Part shown: one piece after another, positions 27,430-57,150 of the stretch
Layout of the letters: the number at the start of each line of letters is the position of its first letter
Numbering within the stretch: position 1 is the first letter of the stretch
NCBI GenBank assembly: GCA_001247695.2
Contig: LGRX02003713.1
Span: 41,414 to 105,413, forward strand
Source of the DNA: Cymbomonas tetramitiformis
Lineage: Eukaryota > Chlorophyta > Pyramimonadophyceae > Pyramimonadales > Pyramimonadaceae
DNA: 64,000 nucleotides
Direction: 5' to 3'
The notes under the pieces: generated by a model
The model's database searches: none
Told to the model about the DNA's origin: nothing
Seen by the model: the letters and a program-made list of their open reading frames with translations, nothing else
Program-made: the position numbers and the translations under genes

Positions 27430-28974
27430 CTTAAGGCGCTAGATGCTTGTGAAGCGTCGCATGCTTCTTGACACCTCGACAGTAAGAGCCAAATGTAGCT
27501 TAGGCGAACATTGCGCTGTGAACTATTGTTGACATAGAGACACAAGTCCATGATCTTCCTTGTAAATTTAGGTTGTATGGTAACCTTAACAATCGTATTT
27601 TTCTGATATTGAGTCGCTTTAGTTCGCTATTATGGTTCTGTCTCTACATTTATAATTGCCTTTTGGCACGATTTTCGGCGCGAATGGAGATTTAGCACGG
27701 GCAGTTCAGGTGGTAAGATTTTGAGTGCTGTGTGGAGATAAGTCTTCGACCTTGCGAGCGTGAAGGCTAATCTTCGATAGGCTATCAGCATGTCTCTCGT
27801 TGCTCTGCGTAAGGCGGCAGTTTTGCCACACTCCAGCGTGAGGAAGTAGTATCCGATCTCTCGCACCTCTGGGACTTAACAGGTTGGCGCCATGAACCTA
27901 CTCGAGGCACTTCGAACTATCGGCTCAGCCTTGCAAGCAGCAATAGTCATAACGGAGTCTGTCTGCTATTCGTATAAGTAGTGTGAATGCAAGCGAGTGG
28001 ACAGATCTGAGTGCGCGGGGAGACTACTGACACTGCAATCAGGTAGGGTCCAAGTCATACGGCAGATATTCCATGCACATCAGCGTGTGCAAAAGATGAA
28101 AACGTCTCCCAGGTGCCACCTGCCAAATCGAAATGCGCATCAGCTATCCTTATTTGAGATCGGCAACGCAAGATCCAAGGCGCGCAGTACCGATGCCGGC
28201 GGTAGGCATAAGATGACGGCTGCGGGTATCCCCTCCCCGTATGTAAGGTATGTATGTCGGCTGCATCTCGCAGACACCCGATCTCACGGAGCCCTCAGGG
28301 GCAAGTCCTTTTCAAATGGATAGGCCCCAAGGTTCTTTTGAGCCAAAGTAAGTGGAATCTTACAAACAGAGATGTCAGCCATCGGGCACTCTTACTACTA
28401 AATTATTGTGGTGATCATATTCGTGCCGCGATCAAGCAGCAACCGCTTTTTCGCATGCCAGTAACTTCCATAATATTAATTACCTTTATCTTGGATTCCA
28501 ACTACTATACTGCTTTCCTTGCCGGCCTTGCTGTGGTTTTCACTCCAAAATACTCGAACTACGCAGACCTATGTGTCGGAACTCACCTACTTTACAAGGT
28601 GGCGCACCTACCGCTTTCTGGGCAGCCCTTGATCACCGCCTCACCTTTACCCTCCCACAACCTCACAATTATCGCTAGGGTATTGCAGTGTTTGTTTCAC
28701 CTTTAAACACTTTTTCTCCCCTGCTGATAGCTTCAAAATTTCACGAGCTTGACACGTGCATATTACGTACGTGATGATCTATTGCTAAATATAAAGGAAT
28801 AACCAAAATTAAGGGATATCTTTTTTAAATGTTTTGGGAATGTGAATGTTCTGTCATGGATGCAAGGAGTTTTATGTAACTTAAGAATTGTGCGAGAACG
28901 ATCTTTGCAAAAAAATAATTTGTGTGAGCTTTATCCCCGTTTTCGGAATGGATATTCGATAACATAAATTATGT
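27430..28974. other. no supported gene
   Basis: Unique-looking sequence with only short frames, probably the 3' flank of the secreted-protein gene and intergenic DNA. The 150-aa frame at 28254-28706 has no motif or codon signal. Confidence 0.5.
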
Positions 28975-30172
28975 TTGTACCAGGCACACTCCTGATAACT
29001 TATACATATTTATTTCTTTATTTTCTTTTATCTTCTTTCTTTTCTTTTTATGGTTTCTATTGTTTTTGGTGTATCACATAGGCTTCTAGCCTTATATTCC
29101 ACTGTTTATTTGCATGACATATACTGGCTACGCAGCCTAGCAATACTATCACTTTTCGATATAATGTATGGTCGCAAACCTATAACATCTATATCCCTAT
29201 GTTCAGTCTTGGCATACAGCCTAACACTAACATGTAAAACTTGTCCTTAATTTCTCTTGATCAACACTAACTGAGGTTCACTTTTTCCAAGCTTCCCCTT
29301 TCAACATGTTGCTTTTTAACAATCGGCACTAGCAGGATTCCTAGATTGACATCTGTCATCGGCCAATTACCAGCAGCCCATGCCTGATTCTGTTACTCCT
29401 CCGCCAATCATCAGGCAGATCATAATACTTGTATTGCCATTGCAGATGTTCTCCTGGAATCTACCATGAATCATTTCATTACAGATCTTCTCCTGAAATC
29501 TGCTTTATCATCGATTATTTTCCCCACTCGCTCACTTATGTGAATATCCGATAACTCCCCATTATTCGCGAGTGGGGCATGCACGCTCGGGGCATACGCC
29601 TTGGGGCATACCCATGGGGCATACACCTTGCCCCATGGGCATACCAATGGGGCATACGCCTTGGGGCATACGCCTTGGGGCATACGCCTCGGGGCATACC
29701 CCTGGGGCATACGCCTTGGGGCATACCCCCGGGGCATACGCCTTGGGGCATACCCATGGGGCATACGCCTCGGGGCATACCCATGGGGCATACGCCTTGG
29801 GGCATACGCCTTGGGGCATACGCCTTGGGGCATACGCCTTGGGGCATACGCCTTGGGGCATACGCCTTGGGGCATAGCCCTGGGGCATGCGCCTTGGGGC
29901 ACAGCCCTGGGGGCATACGCCTCGGGGCATACCCACCCATGGGGCATACGCCTTGGGGCATAGCCCTGGGGCATACGCCTTGGGGCATACGCCTTGGGGC
30001 ATAGCCCTGGGGCATACCCCTGGGGCATGCGCCTTGGGGCATACCCCCAGGGCATACGCCTCAAGGCATACGTCTCGGGGCATACCCATGGGGCATACGC
30101 CTTGAGCTGGGGGCATACGCCTCGGGGCATACCCATGGGGCATACGCCTTCCGGCCGTGCCTCCCGGTACAA
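28975..30172. mobile_element. TTGTACC element, copy 1, with 14-bp VNTR
   Basis: Starts TTGTACCAGGCAC and ends GTGCCTCCCGGTACAA, so the ends form short imperfect inverted repeats. It shares more than 600 bp of nearly identical leader with 53782-54384, then a 14-bp tandem array. Copies differ mainly in array length and a few indels. No flanking duplication was found. No credible protein: the frames in the array only mirror the repeat. Confidence 0.75.
29573..30150. repeat. 14-bp tandem array GGGGCATACGCCTT
   Basis: About 40 units alternating GGGGCATACGCCTT with GGGGCATACCCATG-type variants. Because 14 is not a multiple of three, three units give a 14-residue peptide period in all open frames, which explains the long spurious frames on both strands. 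Confidence 0.95.
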
Positions 30173-30222
30173 CTCCTCCCCCCTCAAGAGCGGCCTATCT
30201 CCCGATGCCGCTCCCGGTGTCG

Positions 30223-31404
30223 TCAGGTATCAAACTCCCCGAACTGAAGATGGTGGAAGAGATGACGCAACAGCGGAGCCGGTACTGGGTACACGGCGTG
30301 AGCATCTCGCGCTCCTGGTTGCTGTGAAGACGATGGTCCAAGCTGAGCAGTTTCAGGGTGCCCTCCGGTGGCCCATTTGCATGCGCAAGGTGTCCGCGAG
30401 GTGCACTCCAGCAATGGCGTTGGTGGAGGTGAGCTAGTCCAGATACACGTTGGTTTACGATATCGCTCCCCATACTTACAGTAGGTGCAAAAAAGAGGTT
30501 GTGGCAGTTCACGAACCACTGACCGCAACCGCAGCGCATTCGGGTATCTTCCTTCAGGATTTTCAAGAAACCAGTGCTTGGGCTTCAAGTACTCAATAGC
30601 ATCCAGGGTGCATTTCACACTCTTGTCTGCTCCTTCCAGATCAGGAGGTCCTCCCGTAGTGCGCGCCTGACTGTACTGGGTACATGGAGGGCTGGCCCAG
30701 ATGACATCAAAGAATCCCGGTGGGTACTGAGTGGGGTCCCAGTCCTCCATTGATGCGAGATGGTCGGGTTGCCATCGTGGGTCGTTGTCGAGCGTAACCA
30801 CCGAGGCAGACGGAAAGCACTTTGCAAACTCTCTTTCCACCGATCCGGTTCCGCTGAACAACACCAAGATTCTCACTGGCCGGGTCTTTCGCTCTTCAAG
30901 GTCGGTGATCACCACTAGCTCTCCATTCTCCAAGATTTCCACCCGCTCCCACGGCAGACAGAAGTCTTCCGGTGGAGAATCCACTTCCGGGACGTCACAT
31001 TGGTGTTCCATTAGCTGGGATAAAGTGACACCAAGGTGAACGGGCTGTCGCTGTTGACGTTGACGTCGGCCATGCTCAACGGACTTCAGCATGTCCGCCT
31101 GCATGCCCAACCGCCGTGCCTCGAACTCCTTGAGCTGCTGATTCTCCCCGCCTCTGTCCATCTTGTCTCTGGAGCGCCACTGGTCGTGAGCTGCCGAGTA
31201 GCCCGTCCAGCGTACCTTCCATTCCTCCACTGATTTACCCTTGATCATGCGTACACGATACGACAGAATTTTGTCCACGTGAGCTTCCGCTTGCCCATCT
31301 ACCATTACCGGGTGAGGTACGGGCAGTTGTGATCGAGATGCAAACTCATCCATGCCGGAAACGTATGGCTTCAGGCGGTGCTGTGCAAACACGTCGTGCG
31401 AATG
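30223..31404 (-). CDS. chromodomain plus C5-cytosine DNA methyltransferase, Gypsy C-terminus
   Basis: The frame first shows the end of the integrase (VFAQHRLKPYVSG). A chromodomain follows at about 31278-31156 (VDKIL, then EEWKVRWTGYSAAHDQW), which would read histone marks to target integration. Next comes a C5 methyltransferase: motif I ILVLFSGTGSVEREF, motif II VVTLDNDP, motif IV IWASPPCTQYS with the catalytic Cys (codon at 30684), motif VI FLENPEG, then YCKYGERYRKPTCIWTS and a C-x-C...GGHPETAQ tail ending VYPVPAPLLRHLF. The PPCTQYS and ENP forms are those of phage/giant-virus-like C5 enzymes rather than DNMT1 or CMT. The methyltransferase is unbroken to the stop. The frame is shifted relative to the integrase at about 31405, so this copy could not make the full polyprotein. 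Confidence 0.85.
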   Translation of the reverse strand, partial: HSHDVFAQHRLKPYVSGMDEFASRSQLPVPHPVMVDGQAEAHVDKILSYRVRMIKGKSVEEWKVRWTGYSAAHDQWRSRDKMDRGGENQQLKEFEARRLGMQADMLKSVEHGRRQRQQRQPVHLGVTLSQLMEHQCDVPEVDSPPEDFCLPWERVEILENGELVVITDLEERKTRPVRILVLFSGTGSVEREFAKCFPSASVVTLDNDPRWQPDHLASMEDWDPTQYPPGFFDVIWASPPCTQYSQARTTGGPPDLEGADKSVKCTLDAIEYLKPKHWFLENPEGRYPNALRLRSVVRELPQPLFCTYCKYGERYRKPTCIWTSSPPPTPLLECTSRTPCACKWATGGHPETAQLGPSSSQQPGARDAHAVYPVPAPLLRHLFHHLQFGEFDT

Positions 31405-33005
31405 CGCCGGTGCGGTGGTAGAGCCAACCGATAAGCCACCGGTGCCCCGCGGTCCGCCTCTGCCAGCTCCGCCTGCAAATCGCTGTAGAAGCACTCCACG
31501 ACAGTTACAGGTCCGTGCCACCGCTTGCCGAGCTTCCGGCACAGCGCACGGTCCATCACCTTCTCCGTCAGGTGACGAGCCTCGATCCATACCAGATCCC
31601 CCACTGCGTACCTATGCTGCTTGTGACGCCGGTCGAACTGCTCCCGCTGGCGCTGCTGAGCCAACTCAAGGCGGCCACGCGCGTCCCGCAACTGCGACGA
31701 AAACTTCACAGCCATCTCATGGGCGGTACCCACCCCCCCTTTTCGTCGCGCAGAGCCAGGGAGAGTCGCAGCCTCCAGGAACAGGTCCAGCTGAGACATT
31801 GGAGACACCCCGTAGCATAGCTCAAAGGGAGTGAATCCGGTGACGTCACTGCGCGAGTCGTTGATAGCAAACTCCACGTTTGTCATGTAGAGGTCCCAGT
31901 CATCCGGATTGGCACCCACGAACGAGCGCAACATGTCCTCGACCACCCTGTTGGTGTGTTCCGCCTGCCCGTCTGAACGAGGGTTGTACGGAGTGGTAGA
32001 AGCCACCCGCACCCCCATAAGTCTCATTAGCTCACGCCAGAACGAGTCTTGGAACCTGGGGTCACGGTCACATACGTATACAATCTTCATGGGGGCTCCA
32101 TGCTGCCTCTTGACCACGTCTAGGTAGATGCGGGCTACCGCCTGCGCAGAGCTGTCCCCAAAATTCATGGGCACAAGGTGTACCATTTTGCTCAGCTTGC
32201 ACGTAAAGGTGACGAAGGCGTCATTCCCCTGGGCGGTGAGCGGCAACCCTGTAACGAAGTCCACGCTCACATCTTGCCAGTTACGTTGAGGAATAGCGTG
32301 CGGATTCAACAATCCATCGGGGTAGGATGCCCGGGGACGAATCGCTTGACACGTAGGGCATGAGGCCACCCATCCTGCCACGTCCTCGGAGGCATTCTTC
32401 CACCAGAACCTGCGTAGATCTCTTTCCAGCGTCTTCTCCAAGCCAGTGTGACCTGCAGTGGTGGAGTCGTGGGCATCCTTGAAGACTACTACCTCTCGCA
32501 AAGGAGAGTCTTCGCCGAGGACCAACTGGTACCGTCCCGCGGCTACACGCCACAGTACGTTCCCGACGATGCGGAAGTCCCTCGTGGCATGGTGCGGGGC
32601 CGCAAGGATGTCATCCCGCAGCTGTTGAAGAGGGCCGGCACGTGCGTACTCATCGTGCAGGGACTCCAGGAATGTAACGTCCGTGGGGAGGCTCGAAGCA
32701 TCGCGGGTCTTAGCAGCCTTACCCTGTCGCACTATCGGAGGCGCCACTCGGGGATGCCGCACTCTTGGCGCCAGCTGTCGGGTAGGGGGAGCATGCACCA
32801 CCAGCACGGGCCACGGAAGGTCGTGGAGTACACCGTCAGGAGTCTCGAACAGCTGGGTGGGTACTCCTCGTTCGTCATGAGTAGGTATCACTTTCACCAG
32901 CCTCATACCAGCCATCCTGAAGAGTCGCCTCCATTGAGGCATGCGAGCCTGGATGTCCGGTAGAAGGAACACTGCCGAGGTATGCGCGGGGTCTTGCCGC
33001 CATTC
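31405..33005 (-). pseudogene. Gypsy integrase and end of N6-methyltransferase-like domain
   Basis: The minus-strand frame opens in the AT repeat and first reads VLRKYVDEWRQDPAHTSAVF then LLPDIQARMPQW and a Trp/Pro-rich segment, the C-terminal half of the N6-methyltransferase-like domain. The integrase follows: H2C2 zinc finger (HDSTTAGHTGLEK...CPTCQ), catalytic core with D in VDFVTG, D in CDRDPRF and E in GQAEHTNR, then the DNA-binding part with DLVWIEARHL and the KLGKRWHGP segment. All three DDE residues are present. The frame ends TTCLHSTA by a one-base shift near 31405 where the adjacent frame continues DVFAQHRLKPY. Confidence 0.85.
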
Positions 33006-33041
33006 ATCCACATACTTGCGCAACACTGCAAGTATGTGGAT
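33006..33041. repeat. perfect 14-bp hairpin next to AT microsatellite
   Basis: ATCCACATACTTGC (33006-33019) and GCAAGTATGTGGAT (33028-33041) with an 8-base loop. It contains codons of the methyltransferase-like domain (LRKYVDE), so one arm is a local inverted duplication. Confidence 0.85.
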
Positions 33042-33600
33042 ATATGACATATATCCACATATATATGACATATATCATATATATGTGATATATATATATA
33101 TATATATGATATATGTCATATATATCATATATGACATATATCATATATATATATATATATCATATATATATATATATATATCATATATGACATATATCAT
33201 ATATATATATATATCATATATATCATATATGATATATATGATATATATGATATATATATATGATATATATGATATATATATCATATATGACATATATGAT
33301 ATATGTCATATATATGATATATATGATATATATATCATATATGACATATATCATATATATATCATATATGACATATATGATATATGTCATATATATGATA
33401 TATGATATATATCTTATATCATATATCATATATATATATATATACATGTACATATATATATATACATACGTATGTACATATGTACATATATTTGTACATA
33501 TGTACGTCATAGTACATATATACATGTATGTACATATATACATGTATGTACATATACATGTATATATGTACATACATATATACATGTATGTATGTATGGA
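33030..33600. repeat. AT-rich microsatellite array (TATATGATATATGACATATA type)
   Basis: About 570 bp of TA dinucleotides with regularly spaced C and G giving ATATGTCATATAT and ACATGTATATAC variants. Almost every part is self-complementary. Frames within it are artefacts. It sits inside the N6-methyltransferase-like domain, between the NPPY motif and the next helix. Confidence 0.95.
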
Positions 33601-33945
33601 GATATGACTGCTGGAGTATGGGGGATTGCACCAGACGTGCTTTCCCCTCCACTGCTGTCGCAGACAATCAGTCTAGTATGCGTCCACTTGACGGTTCCGT
33701 CCACCCAGGTCACAACACGCGTCAACGTCGAAGCTGCCGAACTGTCGTTGGAGGCGCTCAAAGACCTCCTTGCGCACCTTCCAATCCTGCCGATCGGCTG
33801 GCTGTTTGGTGGCTCGACCAGACGGCTGAGCTGGCTGCTTAGGACCTTGGGAATGCGTAGCAGGCGGTGTCGAGGTTTTCGGCTTGGTGGAAGGAGTCGT
33901 CGTATCAGTGGTTTGTCGCAGCTGAGCACTACGGCGCAATACTGG
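33601..33945 (-). pseudogene. phage-type N6-adenine methyltransferase-like domain, N-terminal half
   Basis: The minus strand reads DWKVRKEVFERLQRQFGSFD, then VDACCD, then [17 protein letters not shown] and [13 protein letters not shown]. This is the layout of phage-type Dam-like methyltransferases: an entry helix (xWxTPxxxFxxL), FDVDAC (SAM-binding region) and NPPY (catalytic motif for N6-adenine). The single TAG is one transition from TGG, so the ancestor probably read YWTD. It is shifted one frame from the RNase H frame (near 33940) and cut on its other side by the AT microsatellite. Such domains are known in DIRS elements; here it lies between RNase H and integrase of a Gypsy element. Confidence 0.75.
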
Positions 33946-33999
33946 ATCGGTGCCCGGGGTGCTCGCTTCCTGCCGGCGCTTTCCACATTCGGACAGATT

Positions 34000-34997
34000 A
34001 CAAAATCAGTGAAGTAGTCGGTGGGAGCTCGCAACATTAGTTCCTCTCCAGCGGTTGCATGCTTAGGCGAGCTAGTTGCATGCTCAGGCTGGCACGTTGC
34101 ACGCCCCGCATGCCCCGCATGCCCCGGCGTATGCCCCGGGGCATGCCCCGCTGCATGCCCCACTGAGCTGGTTGCATGCTCAGCCGGCCGTGTTGCCTGC
34201 CCCGCATGCCCCGCATGCCCCGGGGCATGCCCCACTGAGCTGGTTGCATGCTCAACCGGCTGTGTTGCATGCCCCGCATGCCCCGTATGCCCCGGCGCAT
34301 GCCCCGCTGCATGCCCCACTGAGCTGGCAGCATGCTCAGCCGAGCCGGTCGCGTGCCAGGGCGCGCTTCCAGCCTGGATCAGGCTCTCCAGGGCCCGCTC
34401 CGCCGCCTGAAGTGTCTCCACGCCATCCATCCATGATTCCATGGTGGCCACCCATCCTGGTACAGGGGTTGGCGGGTGGTCTTCAAAGATCTCGTCGGCA
34501 TCCAGCACGGAGAGTGGGTCCTTGGGGAGGTCCGTCTCCTTGTCTACGACACCGGCCTCCTTGAGCCCTTCTCGCGGGTCCTTGGTCACGTAGTCAGGTC
34601 GGCGAGATAGCGCATCGGGGACCAGAAGAAGAGCTCCTTTGACGTACTCCATTCGTGGGACACCAACTTCCACCAGGTCCATGTACCACCGTGCCTGTCG
34701 TCGGCTAAGTTCTCGTCCCGGGGACATTAGCCATTCCAGGGGGCGATGGTCACCTTGTAACCGGAAGTCGGAGGAGAACAGGTAGTGCCTCCAGGTGACG
34801 GTGGTGCAATGGTGCAACGCGCAGAGCTCCCTTTCGCCGGTGTGGTAATTCTGTTCCGCCGCAGAAAACTGCCGACTGTCGTAGGCTATCACCCTCATAC
34901 CGTCACCAGTATCTTGCACGAGTACGCCTCCCAAAGCAACTCCACTTGCATCCGTTTGTACCAAAAACGGCGCTGACCCATCCGCGGCTGCCTTCAT
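34000..34997 (-). pseudogene. Gypsy RNase H with His-Ala repeat linker
   Basis: The minus frame from 34997 reads APFLVQTDASGVALGGVLVQ, YDSRQFSAAEQNYHTGERE, then RLQGDHRPLEWL and VPDALSRRP: the RNase H catalytic Asp, Glu and Asp of Ty3/Gypsy. A connector follows, then 34350-34040 encodes repeats such as GHAPGHAGHAGQATRPAEHA, the product of a GCATGCCCC-type DNA repeat read in this frame. The linker ends near FTDFVICPNVES. RNase H removes the RNA template during copying. The repeat linker is unusual for Gypsy and precedes the methyltransferase-like domain. Confidence 0.8.
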
Positions 34998-35257
34998 GAT
35001 TTGTCAGGCAATGCCAATACAGGGGCTGAGGAGAGTGCGGTCTTCAACTCGTCGAAGGCCCATTGCTGGAGTTCTCCCCATTGCCACGGTACGTCGGTCT
35101 TGGTGAGCGAGGTCAGGGGTTGGGCAATCTCCGAGAACCGGTGCACGAACCGGCGGTAGTGCCCCGCTAGCCCAAGGCGCTGTCTGACGCGGGTTACCGT
35201 CTCCAGCTTCGGCCAGTCCTTGATGGAGGACACCTTGTCATGCTCGGATTCGCCCAC
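34994..35257 (-). pseudogene. Gypsy reverse transcriptase, thumb/connection only
   Basis: An 87-residue frame with VRQRLGLAGHYRRFVHRFSE then IAQPLTSLTKTD and FDELKTALSSAPVLALPDKS, the standard segment just after the RT catalytic core. It is one frame off from the RNase H part. The fingers and palm (with YxDD) are absent; the next sequence on the 5' side is the unrelated ORF1-like region, so a deletion removed them. Confidence 0.8.
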
Positions 35258-35789
35258 CGGTTGTCAGGTCACGCTCAGGGCCTCCCAAGCAGCAAGACGC
35301 GCAGCCTCCCAAGCCGCAAGACGTGCAGTTTCCTCCTTCCTCCGGGCTTTCACCCGCTGGTCCAACGTCGTGCGCTTCCTCCCACTCCTCGAAGGCTTCG
35401 AACGACGGGTAGGCGTATCCTCCTCCGAGGACAGCTCACGGTGCTGCTGCAACCGGTACTGGCTGCAATGAATCTCCATCTCGGACTCGTCCGTGCTGTA
35501 GGTTAGATCCGAGGGGCTCGATCCCAGAGTTGCTGCGAGAACTGTCTCGTCTGGTTTGAGGGGGGCAGGATTGGGAGGTGGGGATGCTCGTCGGACGCGT
35601 CCGAACACAGCCTGCACGACCGCCTTGCCGTACTGCTTGACCCGCTGGGCTGTCGTGGTCCATGTTGAGGCCGTCTTGAGCGCATGAGAGTCAAGGGGAG
35701 TGTCGCCAGTGTCCTGCGCTCGTTGTGCCCGCCGACGTCGCCACAAGCGATAGGCTTGCTGTATTGATATCGCCGCGCATGGGAGTTTG

Positions 35790-36275
35790 TTCCATTTATT
35801 GTCGCGGGAAGGGGGGGGGGATATGGCAGACCCCCACCACCCTGGCGGACATCATTTCTTCACCCCTCCCCGGCGGACACTCTCCACCGCACTTTGGCAA
35901 CCCACACCCCACCCACCCGGCTGGACAACACGGCGGACGGGCTATCACGTGACCCCACCACCCCAGCGGACAAAACGGAAATCCTAACCCCCCGCGACAA
36001 TAAATCAAGGTAAGGTTTGCGCGGAGTCCAAAAATGCAAAAACTTTTCAAAAATCTTTTATTTGATAAATAGGTTGCCCAGAGCACCCTGTACATATTGC
36101 GCACTTCAGGTATCAAATTGACCACGTTAATGAAAAGTTATGGTCGATACCGCTCGGTCACCCCCCATACTTAACCATACTTAAGCGCAAACTTAAATCC
36201 CTCGTATCTCAAAATCTAGATTTTGAAAAGTTTTTGCATTTTTGGACTCCGCGCAAACCTTACCTTGAAATGGAA
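35790..36275. mobile_element. MITE with TGTTCCATTTATTGTCGCGG ends
   Basis: TGTTCCATTTATTGTCGCGG at about 35790 is matched in inverse orientation by CCCGCGACAATAAA (35991-36004) plus TGGAACA (36269-36275), once the nested MITE at 36005-36268 and one AA are removed. The interior is C-rich (CACCCC, GGCGGAC) and non-coding. No target duplication was found. Confidence 0.65.
36005..36268. mobile_element. TCAAGGTA-type MITE, intact
   Basis: 264 bp; 48-bp terminal inverted repeats, TCAAGGTAAGGTTTGCGCGG at the left and the inverse at the right, flanked by AA on both sides (2-bp duplication; the uninterrupted site is seen at about 35790-35812 in the opposite orientation). The centre contains CCCCCCATACTTAACC and ATACTTAAG. 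Non-coding. Confidence 0.9.
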
Positions 36276-36659
36276 CAGCCCTTGACATTGTCGAAGGCGA
36301 CGGAGCCCAGTCATCTCCCAAGGTCGGCCTTCCTGCGGTACATTCGTCTTCGGCCCGTATTCTTGCTCCACAGCCCGACGCTGCTCACATGGGCTTAACT
36401 CTGCCCAGGCCAAGCCCAATGTGCCGCCCATGCGACCACGCAAGCGGGCAAGTATAAGCTCGTCCAACTCGTACTTCCGTTGGCGACGGCTGAAAGAAGT
36501 AGTCGCGGGACGTTGTGTAGCATGGCGGCGACTGCGCTCCGCCATCTTGCGTGCCTCTGCCGGGGACTTCTTCTTGAGGGGCATGCGCAGTTGTCGTAGT
36601 AGGACACTTTCAGAAGAGCCGTCGCACGAGTGAGAATGGCTTAAGTATGTGTCACAACT

Positions 36660-37850
36660 ATAATGGAATATTTCTATGATGTAATGTAATCGCTGTGGAA
36701 TCGCAGGAATTAAAAAAATACAATTTTTTTTCATTTTCCCAAAGAAATATTTTTTCAGGGTGAAATCGCCGAAAAACCGTTGTTTTTAGCTTGATTTGGC
36801 CTTCTACTCCATTACGCGGGTGAGGAGTGCAGCGATTCGTGGAATTGAGGGGTTTCATATGTCAGGTAATTAATCCTGATGGTCACCGCAATTTGAAATT
36901 TTGGAAAAAAATATATTTTTGGCTCAAATCGGCCGAAAATCGCGATTTTTTGCCTGTTTCGGCCTGTCGCGGGCCTGTTTTGGCGTTCTACGCCACTCCG
37001 CGCGTGTGGAGTGCGCATATTCGTGGAAATGAGGGTTTTCACATATCACCTAAGCACTCCTGATGGGAATCGCAATTTGAAATTTTGGAAAAAAATATTT
37101 TTTTGGCCCAAATTTCAACAGAAATCGTTTTTTTTTTGCCTGTTCGTCGGCCTGTCGCGGGCGTTTTGGCGTTCTACGCCACTCGGCGCGTGTGGAGTGC
37201 ACATATTCGTGGAAATGAGGATTTTCACATATCACCTAAGCACTCCTGATCGGAATCGCAATTTGAAACTTTGGAAAAAAAATATTTTTTTGGCCCAAAT
37301 TTCAACAGAAATCGATTTTTTTGCCTGTTTCGGCCAGTTGCGGGCCTGTTTTGGCGTTCTACGCCACTCCGCGCGTGTGGAGTGCACATATTCGTGGAAA
37401 TGAGGATTTTCACACATCACCTAGGCACTCCGGATGGGAATCGCAATTTGAAATTTTGGGGGGAAATAATTTTTTGGCCCAACTTTTAACAGAAATCGAT
37501 TTTTTTGCCTGTTTCGGCCAGTCGCGGGCCTGTTTTGGCGTTCTACGCCACTCCGCGCGTGCGGAGTGCACATATTCGTGGAAATGAGGGTGATCACATA
37601 TCACCTGAGCACTCCGGATGGGAATCGCAATTTGAAATTTTGGAAAAAACATTTTTTTGGCCCACATCTCAACATAACTCGTTTTTTGCCTGTTTCGGCT
37701 TGTTCGTGCGGGCCTGTTTTGGCGTTCTACGCCACTCCGCGCGTGTGGAGTGCACATATTCGTGGAATTGAGGGGCTTTAAGTATCACATAAGCAATTTT
37801 GATGGGAATCGCAATTTGAAATTTATCCAAATCGATTACAAAATCCTTGT
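36660..37850 (+). repeat. left arm: six about 185-bp units
   Basis: The string TTCGTGGAA recurs at about 36838, 37018, 37206, 37390, 37575 and 37760 (periods 180-188). Each unit contains GGGCCTGTTTTGGCGTTCTA, the imperfect palindrome ACTCCGCGCGTGTGGAGT, and AAATTTTGGAAAAAAATATT. Protein-like frames (AFYATPRVWSAHIRGNE) are repeat artefacts. Confidence 0.95.
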
Positions 37851-38445
37851 TATTTTGGTATATTATTCGTGGGCCCTGTCGGGCGTTATGCACGGGAGCA
37901 CGGCACGCCGAGACCAAATGCTATTCAACATGGTGTTGTTTGGGTTCTAAGATTCTAGTGATCTATCCTGCGGTGATGATTATACTTCTTCTCAACAACC
38001 CTAGGATGCGTTGGTGCTCAGCATCGGACACCCTATAGACGACTCCTTACCGCGGTATTTGCGTCTGGTCATTGTCACTTCCCTGCGAGCTTCCCTCCTT
38101 CGCGCATGCTTTTCAAGGCGCCTTTTCTTAACACGGTGCTCGGTTTTCCAGTTAAAACATTCCATTTATCGACGAACTCGCGAGATCTGCCCCGCTAGTT
38201 ATGTTGCATGAATCACATTCGTTGGTGCAAAAGGAAACTCCAAAGGCAAGTTGCGCGCCATGTCGCCGAGGCTCACGGGCCATGGCAATACATCCACAAG
38301 GTACCGGAAGGAAGAGGCATCCCTTTTCGAAAAACGCCACTCAAAAGCGGCAAACGACATGTAAGGAATCTACTGGCGAATGCACGCCTTTAATAAACAT
38401 ATTTGCATGTCAGAACTTTTAATGAACGGACACCCACATACCTTA

Positions 38446-39645
38446 GGAATATGAATAGTCGATTAGTCGATCGTGGAAAAGTATACGTAGCGTAAGTATC
38501 GCCCCCAGGATGAAATGACTGTTGCCGCTGGTTCGATCGTGGGGGCGATCCGCCATTTCTCGATTCATCCGCACCCGGACATGTTATATTTCACGTGGCG
38601 TGTGTATCGCACCCACGATCAACTGATGCGTCGATCGTGCGGGCGATTCATAAATTTCGATTCAAGATTCGATCGTGTAATGATTTATCGCCCCGGACAT
38701 GTCATGTTTCACGTGGCGCATGTATCGCACCCACGATTAGGTGATGGGATGATCGGGAGGGCGATAATGCATATCAGATACTTTAATTGAAATTCCGTCA
38801 CGACACCGTAGGCATGTCAGGCCAAAAGTCCGATACCTGCTCACAGGAAGCTCGAATGGTCATGACGTTTCGCCCACACGATCAAGGGATGGGATGATCG
38901 GGAGGGCGATAATGTATATCGGAGCCCTCCTCCGACACATTATAATTGAACGAACGACACGAGAGCCACTTCGCAAGCACTAATTTTCTGCAAAGGAATA
39001 TGAATACGGTCGATTAGTCGATCGTGGAAAAGTATACGTAGCGTAAGTATCGCCCCCAGGATGAAATGACTGTTGCCGCTGGTTCGATCGTGGGGGCGAT
39101 CCGCCATTTCTTGATTCATCCGCACCCGGACATGTTATATTTCACGTGGCGTGTGTATCGCACTCACGATCAACTGATGCGTCGATCGTGCGGGCGATTC
39201 ATAAATTTCGATTCAAGATTCGATCGTGTAATGATTTATCGCCCCGGACATGTCATGTTTCACGTGGCGCATGTATCGCACTCACGATCAACTGATGCGT
39301 CGATCGTGCGGGCGATTCATAAATTTCGATTCAAGATTCGATCGTGTAATGATTTATCGCCCCGGACATGTCATGTTTCACGTGGCGCATGTATCGCACC
39401 CACGATTAGGTGATGGGATGATCGGGAGGGCGATAATGCATATCAGATACTTTAATTGAAATTCCGTCACGACACCGTAGGCATGTCAGGCCAAAAGTCC
39501 GATACCTGCTCACAGGAAGCTCGAATGGTCATGACGTTTCGCCCACACGATCAAGGGATGGAATGATCGGGAGGGCGATAATGTATATCGGAGCCCTCCT
39601 CCGACACATTATAATTGAACGAACGACACGAGAGCCACTGCGCAA
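38446..39645 (+). repeat. tandem duplication of 535/651 bp with CGATCGTG motifs
   Basis: Copy 1 (38446-38980) and copy 2 (38995-39645) are nearly identical and both start GGAATATGAATA. Copy 2 contains an extra internal duplication of about 116 bp. Many CGATCGTG(G/C)GGGCGAT strings are present. Frames with similar peptides in both copies have no recognisable domain. Confidence 0.9.
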
Positions 39646-40246: not shown

Positions 40247-40435
40247 GTGGGGGGGGGAGCGTGGATGCGAGTGCCACAGGTAGGAAGCTAGATCTATTGC
40301 ACACAACAACAGCCTGCAGCACTGCATCCCGTTCGCTGTACGTTTTACAGGCAGTACGGTTAGAACCCTGACTGTGTGATGCAGGATGCAATACGCAGTA
40401 AGGGAAGGAGTGTATATTTGAACAGGCGTTTTTTT

Positions 40436-43470: not shown

Positions 43471-43519
43471 GATTATGCATTTCGGCCATCTCACTCGTGC
43501 GACCGCTCAGAAGTAGCCC

Positions 43520-45189
43520 CAGCCGGACTTCTCCAGCTCCACGATGTCAACCGCCTACGCTGGTCCGCCAGGGAACTCTGGTACACCTCGGAGGCCCCCG
43601 GTGCAGCCAGATGCAGATCCTTGTAGTCGCTGGGCTGAACTGTTGGTGTCGCGTGGGTGCGTAGGGGAGGTCCGTTAACATTCCCGCGGTCAATCGGGAC
43701 ACCGTGTTCGGCACAGTAAGTTTCCCAACAAGGATGTGTTGTCGGTGAGGCTCTCGTTGGAGTCAATGATCCCCGAGCAGGAGGGGAATTCTCCACTGAG
43801 AGGAGTCGTCTGCTCAAAATGTTGGCGCGCCGTGCGCGCTCTCGTCCACTGAAGGCAATCCGTGATGAACGGGGCCTCGAACTTTTGGTAGAGGGGGCCC
43901 ACGCGGCCACACCATGAGGTGAATCTGGTGAAGCCTCTGTGCTCACTGGGGCATGCGGCACTCGCAGTGAGACAGGCTTTGTCGGGGAACAGGCGGTGGC
44001 CTCGTCGCGTGACGTCCGCGAGGGCCATGAAGGACGGGCTGCCACATTGGTATATATAGGGCTGCCTCTGTCCACGGGGTCGATGGAGATTATTATACTC
44101 CTCTTGCCCGGGAGCCCCTGTCGGCTCCCCACTCCGAAAAGCTGGATCCTCGGTGCTCGTGATGTCACACATGGCACACAGATCCCCATAGAGGTCCACG
44201 TCAGCATCCGCCAGAGCGAGGATCTCCTCCATCGTTTCCAGCTCTTCGGGGTTGAGGGAATCCTCCTCGACTCTCTCCTCAATGACTTCTACGCAAGCCG
44301 CCACTTGCCCTGGCCTTCGCGCCAACCGCGCCGGGGCGTTGGCCTTCCAGATGGCCAGCTTCTTCTCGTCCGTGCAATTGGCCACCAAGTGCTCGAGACT
44401 GCCACATGCAAAACAGGGCCGCTCCCTCACCGCAGGTGCCGGTCGGGATCCTTGGGTCGCCGCCGTGCTTACATCCACAGGAGCCGCTGTTGCCGAGTCA
44501 TTCCCAGCAGTCCCCGGCTCCCACGTGAGGGCCGCCAACGCAGGCCTCCTCGGAGTCCACCTAGGCCGACTAGCCGGGGCGCTAAGTGGTGGAGCTTGCC
44601 GCTGTCGGTGTCCCATCTCCAACGCCACCTTGCGGGCGATGGTGTCGTGGAGAACTGCGTCCTCCATCACCTTAGCCGTCTCAATTTCCGTGGCCACGGA
44701 ACGAACCTTCAAGATGGCGGAGGTGTCGGACCGTCCGAGTCGACGTTGTTCCTCTTCCCATTGCTCCGGGTGACTGGTGTCCAGCCCCAGATCCGCCAAC
44801 TTGGAACCCACTTGAACGCTGTGTCGTAATCCACCCCAAAAGAGCTCGAGAAGTTCCAGTTTGGTAACCTTACCGCAACCCCGCACTACGTCCGCCACGA
44901 AGTTGACAGTCGCGGTTCGGGTGGTGATGCAGGTGTAGAAAGCACCGCTCTTCTCCTCCGATCGCTGTCTCGTTGAGAGTAGCTCCGACTTCAGCCGTTT
45001 CAGGGCGTCCGTGGTGATGTCCACTGACAAGGCAAGATCGCCCATGAACCGCGGCACCGCTGCGTACCTCGCCTTCCACGCCTCTCCTTCGCTGCCTCCT
45101 GGCGCCATCTCCTCGACGTACAGCTTCTGGGCCTTGGCCAACTTGGAGGTCTTGATCATCCTGTGCCAGGGGGCACGATAGACTGCCAA
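43520..45189 (-). pseudogene. Gypsy Gag with CCHC knuckle
   Basis: The minus frame from 45189 gives about 330 convincing residues: helical Gag core (FWGGLRHSVQVGSKLADLGL) and CFACGSLEHLVANC, a CX2CX4HX4C knuckle at about 44410-44370, followed by KLAIWKANAPARLAR. The same post-knuckle motif occurs in the plus-strand gag (51129-51250), so both belong to one Gypsy clade. Beyond about 44100 the coding becomes doubtful. The N-terminus is cut at about 45184 by the LTR of the plus-strand Gypsy. Strand and order fit it being the gag of the methyltransferase-bearing Gypsy, separated by the foldback element. Confidence 0.7.
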
Positions 45190-52191: not shown

Positions 52192-52797
52192 TTAGGTGGT
52201 CGACATCGGCGCGGGAGTGTACGGGGCGTGTGTCAACACGCCTGGGGCATGGGGTAGCGGCGAGCCTGTGGCATAGTGGTGTGGCATGCCAAAGGGTTGT
52301 GGCGGCATACTGGAGGCATAGGGAAAGCCTGGGGCATATTGGAGCTGCGGTTGCATGCTCGTTGCGTGCGGGGGCTGGCGTGTTGCATGCCCCGCATGCC
52401 CCGGCGCATGCCCCGCTGCAAGGACTGGCTCTGAAGCATGCCGGGTTGCATGCTGAGTTGCATGCTGTGTTGCATGCTGGGTTGCATGCTGAGTTGCATG
52501 CCATGTTGCATGCTGGGTTGCACGCTGAAGGGCATGCTGAAGGGCACGTCCGGGACAGGTTGATGGACTTCTACAACCTGCCCAGTACTGACCCCTGCGA
52601 TGGAAGCGGTTGGTGGAGAGGGGTCTGAGGGGGTCAGTGGTACGGTGGTGGAAGGGCCCGAAGGTCCAGGCGCGGTGGAAGCGGTTGGCGTAGGGTCTGA
52701 GGGGGTCAAAGGGAAGGTGGTGGTGGAAGGGTCCATTGCGGTGGTGGAAGGGGGCGAAGGTCCAGAAGAAAGCATCAAAAGTCAACTGTTGGTCCAC
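52192..52797 (-). pseudogene. Ala/His-Thr-Gln repeat frame (CATGC repeat), unknown
   Basis: The minus frame contains QHATQHATQHATRHA and AGHAPGHAGHATRQP, similar to the His-Ala linker of the Gypsy element at 34.0-34.35 kb, flanked by Pro/Thr-rich sequence. The DNA repeat is GTTGCATGCTG and GCATGCCCC. Probably a fragment of the same kind of retroelement linker; frame significance is low. Confidence 0.3.
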
Positions 52798-53781
52798 TGT
52801 ATGACAGTTCTGACAACGTCACAATATGACCGAATGATATTTCCCAGGAATACTAGTTGTCCAATAGAACCAAAATATCACCAAAAGCTGTTAAGAACTT
52901 CGCCAGAAGGTATGAATAACTTCCTCCAGAATGTAGAAGGTACCAGCTGCCAAAAATAGCCTTAAGTATGGCGAGGATACAAGATCTGGCTCATCTGACT
53001 CTAATCTCTTCTAGGATGCTAACTCCTATGCTAGAATGGCATTTGGAGTTTCCACGGTATGGTTGGCTACACCGTCACTTTGTAAGATACATATCAAGCC
53101 ATGCGTGTTCGTGCTTGCAGCCAAGTTCTTCTTGGCATCATTAGCTACAATTTGAGCTATCGAATGCCTTGACAGGGGGTGTCTAAGGGGTCTAAATACG
53201 CGTTTATTGGGGTGTAAATCGATCGAATCTGTCTGCCGGAAGAGGCAGACATTCTAGCATGGGACACTGAAAGTTTTTTTTTTTTGCTATTTGTGCTATT
53301 CCGTAAAGTTTTATCATAGTCCCCAGCGGTCTTACTTATGTATGTCTCAGAAGGGAGCTTACACTCCCCCCATACTTAAGCCCACACTCAAGGAATCAGC
53401 AACAAATCTCAGCATCCGCGACATCTGACAAGCATCCAGCAAAAAGCGGCCATACGGGTCCACCAAAGACGTCCACGCGCATAATATGCCAGCTCTATAG
53501 CCGTCGGAGTGGACCAGAACCGAACATTTTTAAGATCAAGTGACAAATCTCGGCCAGAGCCTTAAGAAAAAGCACGATCACGCAGATCCCAACCAAATCC
53601 TTCACAAAGAACATCCCGCAGCGAAACTTTTCCGTGCTTTTAGTGCACGTAACGCGCGCAATTTGAGCCGTCGAACGCAAGCAGAGCCAGCTCAAAACGC
53701 AAACGCAAAAGTCGCCATCTGCAAAACCCCACTCGCAGATCCCAAAGGTCCGTAGAACGTATTCAACATCTGAATACCAAT
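52798..53781. other. no supported gene
   Basis: Contains a T run at 53275-53290 and CCCCCCATACTTAAG at about 53363, a string also seen in the MITE at 36.16 kb and inverted at 12.55 kb. Nothing else recognised. Confidence 0.4.
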
Positions 53782-54809
53782 TTGTACCAGGCACACTCCT
53801 GATAACTTATACATATTTATTTCTTTATTTTCTTTGTTTTCTTTTATCTTCTTTCTTTTCTTTTTATGTTTTCTATTGTTTTGGTGTATCACATAGGCTT
53901 CTAGCCTTACATTCCACTGTTTATTTGCATGACATATACTGGCTACGCAGCCTAGCAATACTATCACTTTTCGATATAATGTATGGTCGCAAACCTATAA
54001 CATTTATATCCCTATGTTCAGTCTTGGCATACAGCCTAACACTAACATGTAAAACTTGTCCTTAATTTCTCTTGATCAACACTAACTGAGGTTCACTTTT
54101 TCCAAGCTTCCCCTTTCAACATGTTGCTTTTTAACAATCACTAACAGGATTCCTAGATTGACATCTGTCATCGGCCAATTACCAGCAGCCCATGCCTGAT
54201 TCTGTTACCCCTCCACCAATCATCAGGCAGATCATAATACTTGTATTGCCATTGCAGATGTTCTCCTGGAATCTACCATGAATCATTTCATTACAGATCT
54301 TCTCCTGAAATCTGCTTTATCATCGATTATTTTCCCCACTCGCTCACTTATGTGAATATCCGATAACTCCCCATTATTCGCGAGTGGGGCATGCACGCTC
54401 GGGGCATACGCCTTGGGGCATACCCATGGGGCATACACCTTGCCCCATGGGCATACCAATGGGGCATACGCCTTGGGGCATACGCCTTGGGGCATACGCC
54501 TCGGGGCATACCCCTGGGGCATACGCCTTGGGGCATACCCCCGGGGCATACGCCTTGGGGCATACGCCTTGGGGCATACGCTGGGGCATACGCCTTGGGG
54601 CATACGCCTCGGGGCATACCCATGGGGCATACGCCTTGCTTGGGGCATAGCCACGGGGCATACGCGGGGCATAGCCCTGGAGCATAGCCCTGGGGCATAC
54701 GCCTTGGGGCATAGCCCTGGCGCATACGCCTTTGGGCATACCCCCAGGGCATACGCCTCGGGGCATACCCATGGGGCATACGCCTTGCTGTCCGTGCCTC
54801 CCGGTACAA
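53782..54809. mobile_element. TTGTACC element, copy 2, with shorter VNTR
   Basis: Same leader, orientation and ends as 28975-30172. The 14-bp array (54385-54786) is about 170 bp shorter and has lost or scrambled units. The flanking sequences differ completely, so this is a dispersed element and not a segmental duplication. Confidence 0.8.
54385..54786. repeat. 14-bp tandem array GGGGCATACGCCTT, copy 2
   Basis: About 28 units, more irregular than copy 1, with units of 11-16 bp near the end. Confidence 0.95.
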
Positions 54810-57150
54810 TGTTCGTACCAGTAATTACGACGAGTGATCACTTCTAGTCTGTGTGGCATGCAATAGTCGCAGTCGTGCCACATGGCGATGAGCATTCGGT
54901 GTCACAATGACAATCGAGCGAGTGTCGAGCGTAGACCGTAGTCCGTCGAGATACGACCCAGATCCTGATTTGTGGGTCTCAGTCTGCTGGGTGTGCGATG
55001 TTGCGTTGGCTGATTCGTGATTGGCTGATGGAGGTAGTTTCGCTCACTCGACGAGAATTTTGAAATACGAAGACCAAGCCGCAAATTACTTCATTTCATT
55101 CCCAAGCTTCTCACGGCAGTGGCTGATTTTGGCGGCTGCTCTGTGGGATGTCCAGTAACTTTCAGAATGACTTTGGTTAATTTTGCTCGATTTTGATCTG
55201 CGTGTTTACCCAGGGTGGTGCTAAGTTGCCGTCAGCGGCGCGAGCGCTGGGTTTCAATTATTTCGGTAAGAGTGCGCTGGACCATGGCTGTCTAAGCGGT
55301 CGCATCCTTGTGCATTTTGCCCTTCACCTCACACACATGCCGTTCTTGTTTTCGCTGGTTGTTATTGTGATTATTATATACCCGCGCGACCGGGGCTTGT
55401 CCCTGGCGGGATCCGCTTTCGGTATTTGCCGACCATGCTGTTGCTGATGTTTTACTTCTTCGTCCAAAATGTAGCGGCGCGACTTGGGCTTGTCACTAGC
55501 GGGATCTTTCCTCGGTCTTTGCCGACCATGCTATGGAAAGGTGAGATTAAGGGTTCCGCCGGACGAGTTTATTTAGTTCGCTGAATTATCCATAATTTGC
55601 AGGTTGGACGTCTGCTTCGTGTGTCTCAAGCAACTACAGAATCGGAGTGTCCTGTGGGAATCGATCGCGGAACTCTTCATTTCAAAGTGCGTGGTCTTGT
55701 GTGGCAGATCCTTATCCCCGGTAATTGAGAAAGTCTGTAAACGCTTCTGCATCGTTACTGATGACACGCTTACGCGTTGGTGTGTGCAGACTTCACGCGC
55801 CACTCGCGACACCGCAAAAGTGAGCATCGTTAAACAGTGGTGGTTTAGCGCAGCCTAGAATCGCGCTGTGAAAGCACGGGCAATGTAAAGCAGTGAGCGG
55901 CAAATCTGAAGACAGAGTAGATTCATAGAGTATGATAATGAATAGATCTCAGTTACCACTAGGAAGTATTGAAATTAAGTAACAGCTGCCATAACTTTCA
56001 TAAGTACTCAGCCAGAGATGGTGACATGCATGCGTTGCTTGAAACTGGTGTCGTGCCTCTACGAGGCCGTAGCTGTCGTAGATCTCGCGTAACTTAGAAT
56101 TACCCACAGCAAAAAAAACTCAATATAAGCCATTTTCTAGACGTTGCATACATCAACTTCTGAAATATTTGATTATCAAGTTATCAATGATCAGAGTTAT
56201 AGGACTCCTGCATTAAGCAGTAGCAAAATGGCAATTCGTATGCAAAATTTCTCTTAGATACGTGCGTTGCTAGGGTGAGCATCGTTTTTTTTGCGATGTG
56301 CCTACTGCGTCATTTCTGCTCAGGCAAAGCGGGGTGTTCACCTTACCTATAGAGGGACTGTACCCAAAATGTTTTGACCACATCACTGTATTTTAATTGA
56401 CTTGCTACAGAGAGAGGTCGACCCACTTCATGCTTGGTGAAGTCCATTAAAATCATTTTGATACTATACCATCTCCATCCCGCTGTTCCATTCTGTCAAT
56501 GAATCACTTCCGAAGAATAACCTATGATTGCAGCAATCCTCTCTAGGGTACTAATTCTCTCTAAGGTACTGAAGCAACCAATTGCTACTGCCAGACTTGA
56601 CTGCTGCTTCCCCCAGGTATAAACTGCATCCAACCAAACTACAATTGTATCAACACAAATCATTCTCTCCTCCACATTTGGGGAATACGATCATGTGCAA
56701 AATGATACATATCAATGCTGAGCAGGCATTGCAGTGATCAGATTAATGCCCGCAAACATGACGACATCTCAGGAACTCAGATGCAAAGGCATATAAAGCA
56801 CGTCATCAAAGCAAGACGTCTAACCTTCGTGAGAGTGTGAGGGATGTAACGATGTTGGGCAATGCATGTGCATGTGGCTTGTTCAAGATCTCTGGTATTG
56901 AGGTGCGTTTCGACGACAACAGCTTCTGATCCGAGAGCCAAGCTACATTCACCATCACCCCGAACCACAGGATCACCTTGTATGCTTGCTGTATGCTGGA
57001 TTCCTCGTTGGCAGTGTTTCTAGAGCTCCTCAGGTGAAATAGCCTCAACAGGTACTTGGCCCCAGTGCGAAGGGGTGGCTGCGGCAGCAAGTGCCGTTGT
57101 CTCCTCACCTGAGCACCACCGCAAAAATCACACAGCAACCATTGGCGAGC
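54810..57150. other. no supported gene
   Basis: 55383-55440 and 55476-55533 are a 93-bp-spaced duplication (GCGCGAC..GGGCTTGTC). A TTTGCAG at about 55603 precedes an 84-aa frame without motif. Several minus frames at 56.8-57.1 kb may be remnants linked to the protease-like fragment. Confidence 0.4.

What the first reader, a model, noticed from the sequence alone, without database searches (positions are those of the whole stretch)
30223..34997. Chromodomain Gypsy element carrying two different DNA methyltransferases
On the minus strand the pol order is RNase H, N6-adenine methyltransferase-like domain (FDVDAC...NPPY), integrase, chromodomain, C5-cytosine methyltransferase (SPPCTQYS, ENP). C5 enzymes captured by retrotransposons are known from Symbiodinium and Klebsormidium, and Dam-like domains from DIRS elements. 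I know of no description of both types in one Gypsy polyprotein. Such an element could write 6mA and 5mC on its own cDNA or at its insertion site while its chromodomain reads chromatin, for example to mimic host marks or protect the copy. This copy is broken (frameshifts at about 31405, 33940 and 34995, one stop, missing RT core), but the C5 domain is intact.
Basis: partly seen in the sequence, partly recalled or inferred. Interest (0 to 1): 0.88.

Follow-up and report, generated by a model that had tools for sequence, protein, structure and literature searches.

The report
Retrotransposon with two DNA methylating enzymes
A very abundant jumping element in the green alga Cymbomonas carries, inside its own replication protein, two unrelated enzymes that look able to put methyl marks on DNA, one for adenine and one for cytosine, and both have been kept in shape by selection.

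Summary
The window lies in the Cymbomonas tetramitiformis genome. The 30.2-35.0 kb stretch is the 3' part of one old, broken LTR retrotransposon spanning 28,976-54,808, bounded by a 5-bp target duplication (ATGTT) and split by two nested inserts. Young copies have an unbroken pol frame of about 2,780-2,870 aa: protease, RT, RNase H, N6-adenine methyltransferase (PF05869, E 1.2e-11), integrase, chromodomain, C5-cytosine methyltransferase. All 12 long frames that I fetched have both domains and catalytic motifs. Among them both domains show the low replacement rate of RT and integrase; the linker does not. A second subfamily, about 50% identical, is also open. Distant metagenomic relatives keep the order; two other proteins carry both enzymes in other orders. 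By sequence both domains are closest to phage enzymes. The 2015 genome paper saw a cytosine methyltransferase, RNase H and chromodomain on hyper-abundant scaffolds; I found no description of the element, the adenine enzyme or the pair. Enzyme activity and purpose are untested, and copies show no significant CpG-decay footprint. Best guess: the element methylates its own cDNA or insertion site.

The parts
28971..28975 (.). target-site duplication ATGTT, left
   Evidence: same 5 bases follow the other LTR at 54809-54813
28976..30171 (-). 3' LTR (TGTACC...GGTACA), with a 27-nt tandem repeat inside
   Evidence: matches LTRs of young copies at about 89-91% and the window 5' LTR at 94.7% over 1,024 aligned columns
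30172..30185 (-). polypurine tract (GAGGGGGGAGGAGT) next to the 3' LTR
   Evidence: read from the sequence; the same bases in C366, C22237 and C174
30223..30912 (-). C5-cytosine methyltransferase domain, open, with GTGS, SPPC and ENP motifs; ends pol, 51 bases before the 3' LTR
   Evidence: PF00145 1.2e-3, phrog_757 9.8e-16; fold by AlphaFold2 of a young copy's domain; distance
31114..31281 (-). chromodomain
   Evidence: PF00385 1.6e-6
31494..32486 (-). integrase: H2C2 zinc finger, rve core, SH3; frame changes near 31.4 kb
   Evidence: PF17921 1.5e-16, PF00665, PF24626
32775..33029 (-). N6-adenine methyltransferase domain, C-terminal half
   Evidence: collinear with the Dam domain of young copies; modelled
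33030..33595 (.). AT-rich simple-repeat insertion inside the N6 domain of this copy
   Evidence: absent between matched blocks of the young copy L012
33596..33801 (-). N6-adenine methyltransferase domain, N-terminal half (FDVDAC, NPPY), with one stop
   Evidence: PF05869 in two frames; unbroken in young copies at 1.2e-11
34069..34357 (-). His/Gly-rich repeat linker between RNase H and the N6 domain
   Evidence: repeats also found at two places in young copies
34671..35244 (-). RNase H and the end of RT; about 2.7 kb of protease/RT lost beyond
   Evidence: PF17917 1.7e-28; gap 35244|35304 against L012 4780|2044
35304..36620 (-). upstream coding part of pol, remnants (35304-35776, 36423-36620)
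   Evidence: 93-95% to L012
36621..43506 (.). nested insert in the element
   Evidence: L012 matches stop at 36620 and resume at 43507
43507..45161 (-). N-terminal end of the pol frame and part of the upstream frame
   Evidence: 94.5% to L012, 98% to L026
45162..52192 (.). second nested insert
   Evidence: matches to L026 and L030 stop at 45161 and resume at 52193
52193..53716 (-). start of the upstream (gag-position) frame and 5' leader
   Evidence: matches to L023, L026 and L030
53783..54808 (-). 5' LTR
54809..54813 (.). target-site duplication ATGTT, right

Best explanation
It is an old broken copy of a young, very abundant chromodomain Ty3/Gypsy-type retrotransposon family of Cymbomonas tetramitiformis. 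Its pol polyprotein carries two phage-type DNA methyltransferases: an N6-adenine enzyme between RNase H and integrase, and a C5-cytosine enzyme at the extreme C-terminus behind the chromodomain. Shown: anatomy, copies with an open pol frame, target duplications, conserved motifs, predicted folds, purifying selection. Inferred: both are active DNA methyltransferases made in the same particle as RT and integrase. The C5 enzyme stays linked to integrase and chromodomain and so acts at the cDNA ends and insertion site; the N6 enzyme acts on cDNA during or just after reverse transcription. The marks make the new copy look like host DNA, or shield it from nucleases, until it is integrated.
For: Open pol frames of 2,776-2,869 aa in 8 of the 12 loci fetched, and 2,005-2,629 aa in the other 4; all 12 hold FDVDAC, NPPY, GTGS, SPPC and ENP. 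Pfam order in 3 of 3 frames scanned. LTR ends TGTACC...GGTACA and 5-bp duplications in 3 of 3 young copies checked. Codon variation among the 12 copies (singletons plus shared changes, replacement/silent): Dam 2/12, C5 3/11, RT-RH 3/12, IN 8/28, chromodomain 0/5, linker 23/14, rest 9/14. Second subfamily: all 40 places scored (of 21,490 first-look candidates) without stops over the Dam-integrase stretch, with the C5 stretch matched as well; the one read, L035, has NPPY, SPPC and ENP. PF05869 over its cut-off at 150 of 150 scored places (of 7,257 candidates), many in frames of 1,000-3,110 aa. Folds: C5 model pLDDT 89.1, the 50 listed PDB matches all C5 methyltransferases; N6 model pLDDT 86.0, top viral match a phage DNA N6-adenine methyltransferase, E 1.6e-10. 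Retrotransposon DNMTs were reported able to methylate CG de novo (PMC5890265, abstract).
Against: No activity, methylation or expression data of my own. Plain Foldseek of the N6 model against the PDB has no match at E 0.001 or better (best 1.2e-3, the MTA1-MTA9 complex). PF05869 matches only positions 6-80 of 169. The N6 catalytic motif is altered in 7 of 35 distinct aligned stretches and has a gap in P0101 and P0027, so it is dispensable in some lineages. In the chromodomain-C5 region of 22 copies (10 older, 12 young) CpG transitions are not in excess (9 at 192 CpG-context sites against 23 at 603 others, Fisher p 0.67); among young-copy singletons 11 of 28 C>T/G>A changes lie in CpG against 25% expected, p 0.08. 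So there is no clear trace of lasting CpG methylation. The C5 domain is short. Relatives with a C5 domain and no N6 domain exist (P0231, P0233). The upstream frame is uninterrupted for 1,075 aa or more in only 3 of the 6 copies looked at, so not every copy with an open pol is complete.
Confidence: 0.55

Rival explanations
1. Self-silencing: the enzymes methylate the new copy and its surroundings to repress it, limiting damage to the host; no disguise or protection is involved.
For: Very high copy number with host survival: Burns et al. 2015 report scaffolds above 10,000x coverage (modal scaffold coverage 21x) with chromodomain, RNase H and cytosine methyltransferase, and ordinary transcript levels for repeats (PMC5741210, passages). 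Chromodomain beside the C5 enzyme.
Against: No significant CpG-decay footprint; self-silencing does not explain an added adenine enzyme, since in eukaryotes 6mA is associated with transcriptionally permissive chromatin (PMC12695648, title and passages).
Confidence: 0.2
2. Only the C5 enzyme is active. The N6 domain has become a structural spacer or nucleic-acid binding part of RT/integrase.
For: Motif NPPY changed to SPPS, SLSS, EPSF, DCTK and others in 7 of 35 distinct stretches; a two-residue gap there in P0101 and P0027.
Against: 28 of 35 keep NPPY or NPPF, including P0217 and P0216 at 40-44% identity; replacement rate in young copies as low as for RT.
Confidence: 0.15
3. The methyltransferases act on other DNA: they protect the host against DNA viruses (the domain-as-defence idea of PMC6338049) or make the element's DNA resistant to a host restriction-like system.
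For: Both domains resemble phage enzymes. The host genome holds giant-virus and polinton-like elements (PMC10675990, abstract and passages).
Against: No nuclease domain other than RNase H and integrase appears among the Pfam matches of the pol frame; a selfish element gains little from general defence (inference). Not tested directly.
Confidence: 0.08
4. Chance: two passengers captured long ago and not needed.
For: Some relatives have a degenerate N6 motif or no N6 domain.
Against: Purifying selection; order kept at 24-57% domain identity; both enzymes in three domain orders.
Confidence: 0.02

Closest known systems
KnitGypsy-Dnmt3 of Klebsormidium nitens (PMC5890265)
   Same: LTR Gypsy element with a C5-cytosine methyltransferase in the Pol polyprotein under purifying selection
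   Different: There the C5 enzyme is Dnmt3-related and the passages seen mention no adenine enzyme in it. Here the C5 domain is closest to phage enzymes, C-terminal, and accompanied by an N6 domain. The two were not compared directly.
DIRS elements with a Dam-like domain (PMC3783388; PMC5890265)
   Same: N6-adenine methyltransferase PF05869 in a retrotransposon pol
   Different: DIRS use a tyrosine recombinase and no DDE integrase. This element has a DDE integrase, LTRs and 5-bp duplications.
Symbiodinium LINE and DIRS elements with DNMTs (PMC5890265)
   Same: retrotransposons with cytosine methyltransferases, high copy number in an alga
   Different: other retroelement classes and eukaryotic-type enzymes; one mark only, in the passages seen
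Hyper-abundant Cymbomonas scaffolds of Burns et al. 2015 (PMC5741210)
   Same: probably this family: chromodomain, RNase H and cytosine methyltransferase on scaffolds above 10,000x coverage
   Different: the passages seen describe no element and no adenine enzyme
Chlamyvir-related chromovirus in a Cymbomonas PLV (PMC10675990)
   Same: Ty3/Gypsy with chromodomain in the same alga
   Different: no word beginning with 'methyl' in that paper's main text

Membership tests
Ty3/Gypsy LTR retrotransposon | two LTRs, short target-site duplication | tested here: met
   TGTACC...GGTACA LTRs with 5-bp duplications in 3 of 3 young copies checked and in the window copy
Ty3/Gypsy LTR retrotransposon | pol order protease-RT-RNase H-integrase | tested here: met
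   3 of 3 frames, with the N6 domain between RNase H and integrase
Ty3/Gypsy LTR retrotransposon | RT groups with named Gypsy reference RTs | not tested
   my RT tree holds only hits and one genomic copy, mostly unnamed
Chromovirus | chromodomain behind the integrase core | tested here: met
   PF00385 5.8e-6 to 5.9e-6, over its cut-off, in 3 of 3 young frames scanned
Chromovirus | RT inside the chromovirus clade | tested here: inconclusive
   own clade (SH-aLRT 99) apart from sunflower and Coccomyxa rows; no curated reference set used
DNA N6-adenine methyltransferase (Dam, PF05869) | profile match over the curated cut-off | tested here: met
   45.0-45.1 bits against 28.1; only positions 6-80 of 169 match
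DNA N6-adenine methyltransferase (Dam, PF05869) | catalytic (D/N)PP(Y/F) motif (motif recalled) | tested here: met
   NPPY in 12 of 12 young copies; NPPY or NPPF in 28 of 35 distinct stretches overall
DNA N6-adenine methyltransferase (Dam, PF05869) | methylates adenine in DNA | not testable with these tools
C5-cytosine DNA methyltransferase | motif I, catalytic PC (motif IV), EN (motif VI) (motifs recalled) | tested here: met
   GTGS, SPPC, ENP in 12 of 12 young copies; SPPC in 64 of 66 and ENP in 61 of 62 retroelement rows that cover them
C5-cytosine DNA methyltransferase | C5 methyltransferase fold | tested here: met
   pLDDT 89.1; the 50 Foldseek matches listed are all C5-type enzymes, E 1.7e-7 to 2.5e-6, TM to query 0.43-0.62. 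PF00145 itself stays under its cut-off in the family's own copies (15.6-18.8 of 22) and passes in the relative P0202 (25.8)
KnitGypsy-Dnmt3 | Dnmt3-type C5 domain | tested here: inconclusive
   closest by sequence to phage enzymes (2e-15); no solved DNMT better than E 0.08, though DNMT3 structures are among the fold matches; the K. nitens sequences themselves were not compared
DIRS | tyrosine recombinase in place of DDE integrase | tested here: not met
   H2C2/rve integrase and LTRs with duplications

The most novel reading that the evidence does not exclude
A class of Gypsy-type retroelements writes two chemically different marks, 6mA and 5mC, on its own DNA as part of its replication cycle. 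The pair is so useful that it was assembled or rearranged more than once: RT-RH-N6-IN-chromo-C5 in Cymbomonas and its relatives, N6-C5-RT-RH in P0254 (P0068 alike as far as it goes), C5-RT-RH-N6 in P0255. The element supplies the writers and, in the first order, a chromatin reader in one polyprotein.
Probability: 0.35. Interest if true: 0.88.

Novelty: new variant of a known kind. Interest (0 to 1): 0.77.

Why it matters
Retrotransposons with one DNA methyltransferase raise the open question of why a parasite would carry a writer of a silencing mark. A family with two unrelated writers, under selection and abundant in an alga whose genome was already sequenced by nanopore (PMC10675990), makes the question testable: if the raw signal of those reads is available, they could be re-called for 5mC and 6mA over young copies. 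It would also show phage-type DNA modification enzymes at work inside a eukaryotic retroelement.

Tried and rejected
Rejected: that the N6 domain is a separate insertion with its own boundaries (same place in all 12 fetched young copies, and in diverged families). Rejected: that the methyltransferases are chance matches. Rejected: that the range given is the whole element.

Not settled: independent co-capture in two RT lineages. P0254/P0255/P0247 lie far from the Cymbomonas clade on the RT tree, and their C5 domains fall with P0068, P0070, P0073 and one fragment, P0074, in a separate clade (SH-aLRT 98). An AU test does not reject one clade on RT: p 0.435 on the quick tree, and 0.396 on a careful tree without four long rows (P0241, P0257, P0189, P0252). 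In P0254 and P0255 no integrase or chromodomain was found in the piece held, so that they are Gypsy elements rests on RT and RNase H. Whether Cymbomonas itself holds the P0254 order could not be asked: seven requests did not complete.

Led nowhere: IMG/VR with P0202 gave no relative. dN/dS between the two subfamilies is saturated (pS 0.77-0.87). CpG footprint: not significant. The first count of G>A over C>T in older copies, which counted one site many times, shrank to 23 against 9 sites, p 0.05, once sites were counted once.

Limits: the 12 copies for the selection test were 12 of the 14 frames of 2,000 aa or more, chosen for being open; that count used the last 1,690 codons, only columns with at least 10 copies, and left out codons with more than one change. 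One of the 12 (L017) runs to the end of its contig. All relatives come from three protein searches with queries of this family, so frequencies of architectures are not unbiased. In the 274-protein scan 40 hold both family-specific domains, 12 of these being the fetched copies, and several of the other 28 only a piece of the N6 domain.


Full report
Where it is. The window's frames match hypothetical proteins of Cymbomonas tetramitiformis at up to 92-97%. The genome holding the window has 851.7 Mb in 25,745 contigs; for this phago-mixotrophic green alga flow cytometry gave 850 Mb and k-mers 1.2 Gb (PMC5741210, passages).

The observation. Pfam and PHROGs confirm RNase H, an N6-adenine methyltransferase in two broken pieces, integrase, chromodomain and a C5-cytosine methyltransferase on the minus strand. 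The window copy is one old insertion of 25.8 kb, 28,976-54,808. Its LTRs (28,976-30,171 and 53,783-54,808) begin TGTACC and end GGTACA, are 94.7% identical over 1,024 aligned columns, and are flanked by ATGTT on both sides. Two stretches, 36,621-43,506 and 45,162-52,192, show no match of 150 bases or more to the copies compared and are nested inserts. About 2.7 kb of protease and RT are lost at 35,244|35,304, and an AT-rich repeat of about 560 bp sits inside the N6 domain.

Relatives with an open pol in the same genome. A search with the chromodomain-C5 frame scored 92 of 11,459 first-look candidates; all 92 match, 84 without a stop inside, and 14 lie in open frames of 2,000 aa or more (counted from its table). 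I fetched 12 of these 14. Eight have pol frames of 2,776-2,869 aa and four of 2,005-2,629 aa, and all 12 contain FDVDAC, NPPY, GTGS, SPPC and ENP. Three of the 12 were scanned by Pfam; all give protease, RT, RNase H, Dam (1.2e-11, over the cut-off), H2C2/rve/SH3 integrase, chromodomain and a weak C5 match in that order. The C5 frame stops 51 bases before the 3' LTR in the window, C366 and C22237, with a purine tract next to the LTR. Upstream lies a separate frame at the gag position: 1,075-1,097 aa or more, cut by the edge of the fetched stretch, in 3 of 6 copies looked at, and interrupted or shorter in the other 3; the one scanned has no Pfam match. One copy (C366) measures 16.4 kb from LTR to LTR. 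Target duplications of 5 bp flank 3 of 3 young copies checked: GTTTG, CCGTG, TTACG.

Selection. Among the 12 copies, replacement/silent counts (singletons plus shared) are Dam 2/12, C5 3/11, RT-RH 3/12, integrase 8/28, chromodomain 0/5, linker 23/14 and the rest 9/14. Per site this is about 0.05-0.09 for Dam, C5, RT-RH and integrase and about 0.6 for the linker (my arithmetic on the counts). No shared replacement is seen in Dam, C5, RT-RH or chromodomain. The copies were chosen for open frames, which removes stops but not amino-acid changes.

Wider family. A second subfamily (query P0211, 82% identical to the genomic places over the Dam-integrase stretch; P0211 itself is 50% identical to P0100, a close relative of the window copy) gave 40 scored places of 21,490 candidates, all without stops over that stretch; 17 of the 40 lie in frames of 2,500 aa or more (counted from its table). 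One, L035, was read and has NPPY, SPPC and ENP. PF05869 alone gave 150 of 150 scored places over the cut-off, of 7,257 candidates; of 14 control genomes only E. coli rang. Metagenomic relatives keep RT-N6-IN-chromo-C5: P0216 (domains 39-49% identical), P0217 (30-57%, with a PHD finger) and P0219 (24-48%, N6 motif lost). Two proteins carry both enzymes in other orders with both Pfam matches over the cut-off: P0254 Dam-C5-RT-RNase H, behind a protease match just under its cut-off (20.2 of 20.7 bits), and P0255 C5-RT-RNase H-Dam. P0068, a shorter protein without an RT match, has Dam then C5, with Dam at 23.1 bits under its cut-off. C5 without N6 occurs as well: P0247, P0231 (with Tudor) and P0233. 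Across 35 distinct stretches the N6 motif is NPPY or NPPF in 28; across retroelement rows the C5 motif is SPPC in 64 of 66 and ENP in 61 of 62.

Mechanism. I think it most likely that both enzymes are packaged with RT and integrase and methylate the element's own DNA. The C5 enzyme, fused behind integrase and chromodomain, is placed to act at the cDNA ends and insertion site; the N6 enzyme between RNase H and integrase is placed to act on cDNA. This is inference from position; how the polyprotein is cut is unknown. de Mendoza et al. made the same proposal of self-methylated cDNA for single C5 enzymes (PMC5890265, abstract and passages). A lasting CpG mark finds no clear support: in 22 copies (10 older, 12 young) 9 of 192 CpG-context sites against 23 of 603 others carry C>T/G>A (p 0.67), and among young-copy singletons 11 of 28 such changes are in CpG against 25% expected (p 0.08). 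The CpG ratio is 0.93 over the window and 0.86 over 30,223-33,029.

What was known. I saw the abstract and passages of PMC5890265 (C5 in Symbiodinium LINE/DIRS and Klebsormidium Gypsy, Dam in DIRS), and passages of PMC3783388 (Dam in DIRS), PMC6338049, PMC10675990, PMC12344493, PMC12695648 and PMC12477816 (a ParB plus N4/N6 methyltransferase protein in a DNA transposon). [quoted passage not shown] it does not, in the passages seen, place both in one element. Burns et al. 2015 (passages) report three scaffolds above 10,000x coverage, modal 21x, with homology to a chromodomain, an RNase H and a cytosine methyltransferase; this is very likely the same family. In nine full-text searches no listed title or abstract start describes both enzyme types in one retroelement; I looked inside eight papers only, and subscription papers and Repbase were not searched.

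Verdict. A real, abundant and selectively maintained architecture that I find nowhere described as such: a new variant of a known kind (retrotransposons that carry DNA methyltransferases), with an open and testable function.

Noticed in passing
window 1108-6142 (+): A 1,233-aa frame with a viral/organellar type B DNA polymerase (PF03175, 7.3e-49), followed by a 482-aa frame with an integrase core (PF00665, 1.5e-6, under its cut-off): looks like a Polinton/Maverick-like element.
   Followed up: no
window 36621-43506 and 45162-52192: Two nested inserts inside the retrotransposon; the second holds long frames (476, 508, 308, 346 aa), one with a zinc knuckle (PF00098, 1.6e-4), so perhaps another retroelement.
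   Followed up: partly
window 29589-30150 and the LTR sides of L011-L013: A 27-nt tandem repeat inside the LTR, near-perfect in these young copies and different in number between them.
   Followed up: partly
P0217, P0231, P0233: Relatives with a C5 enzyme carry other chromatin readers: a PHD finger in P0217, a Tudor-like domain in P0231 and P0233.
   Followed up: no
P0090, P0092, P0262: Proteins without an RT match that join a C5-like domain to N6 or N6/N4 methyltransferase domains (the C5 match of P0090 is under its cut-off); a possible model for how the pair could be captured together.
   Followed up: no
chromodomain-C5 region of L001-L022: More G>A than C>T sites on the coding strand (23 against 9, p 0.05): weak hint of cDNA-strand editing or RT error; in the longer pol stretch of the young copies the singletons are 16 against 12.
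   Followed up: partly
linker between RNase H and the N6 domain, window 34069-34357: His/Gly-rich repeats (GHAGHA...), which also occur at a second place in the same polyprotein and near the start of the upstream frame.
   Followed up: no
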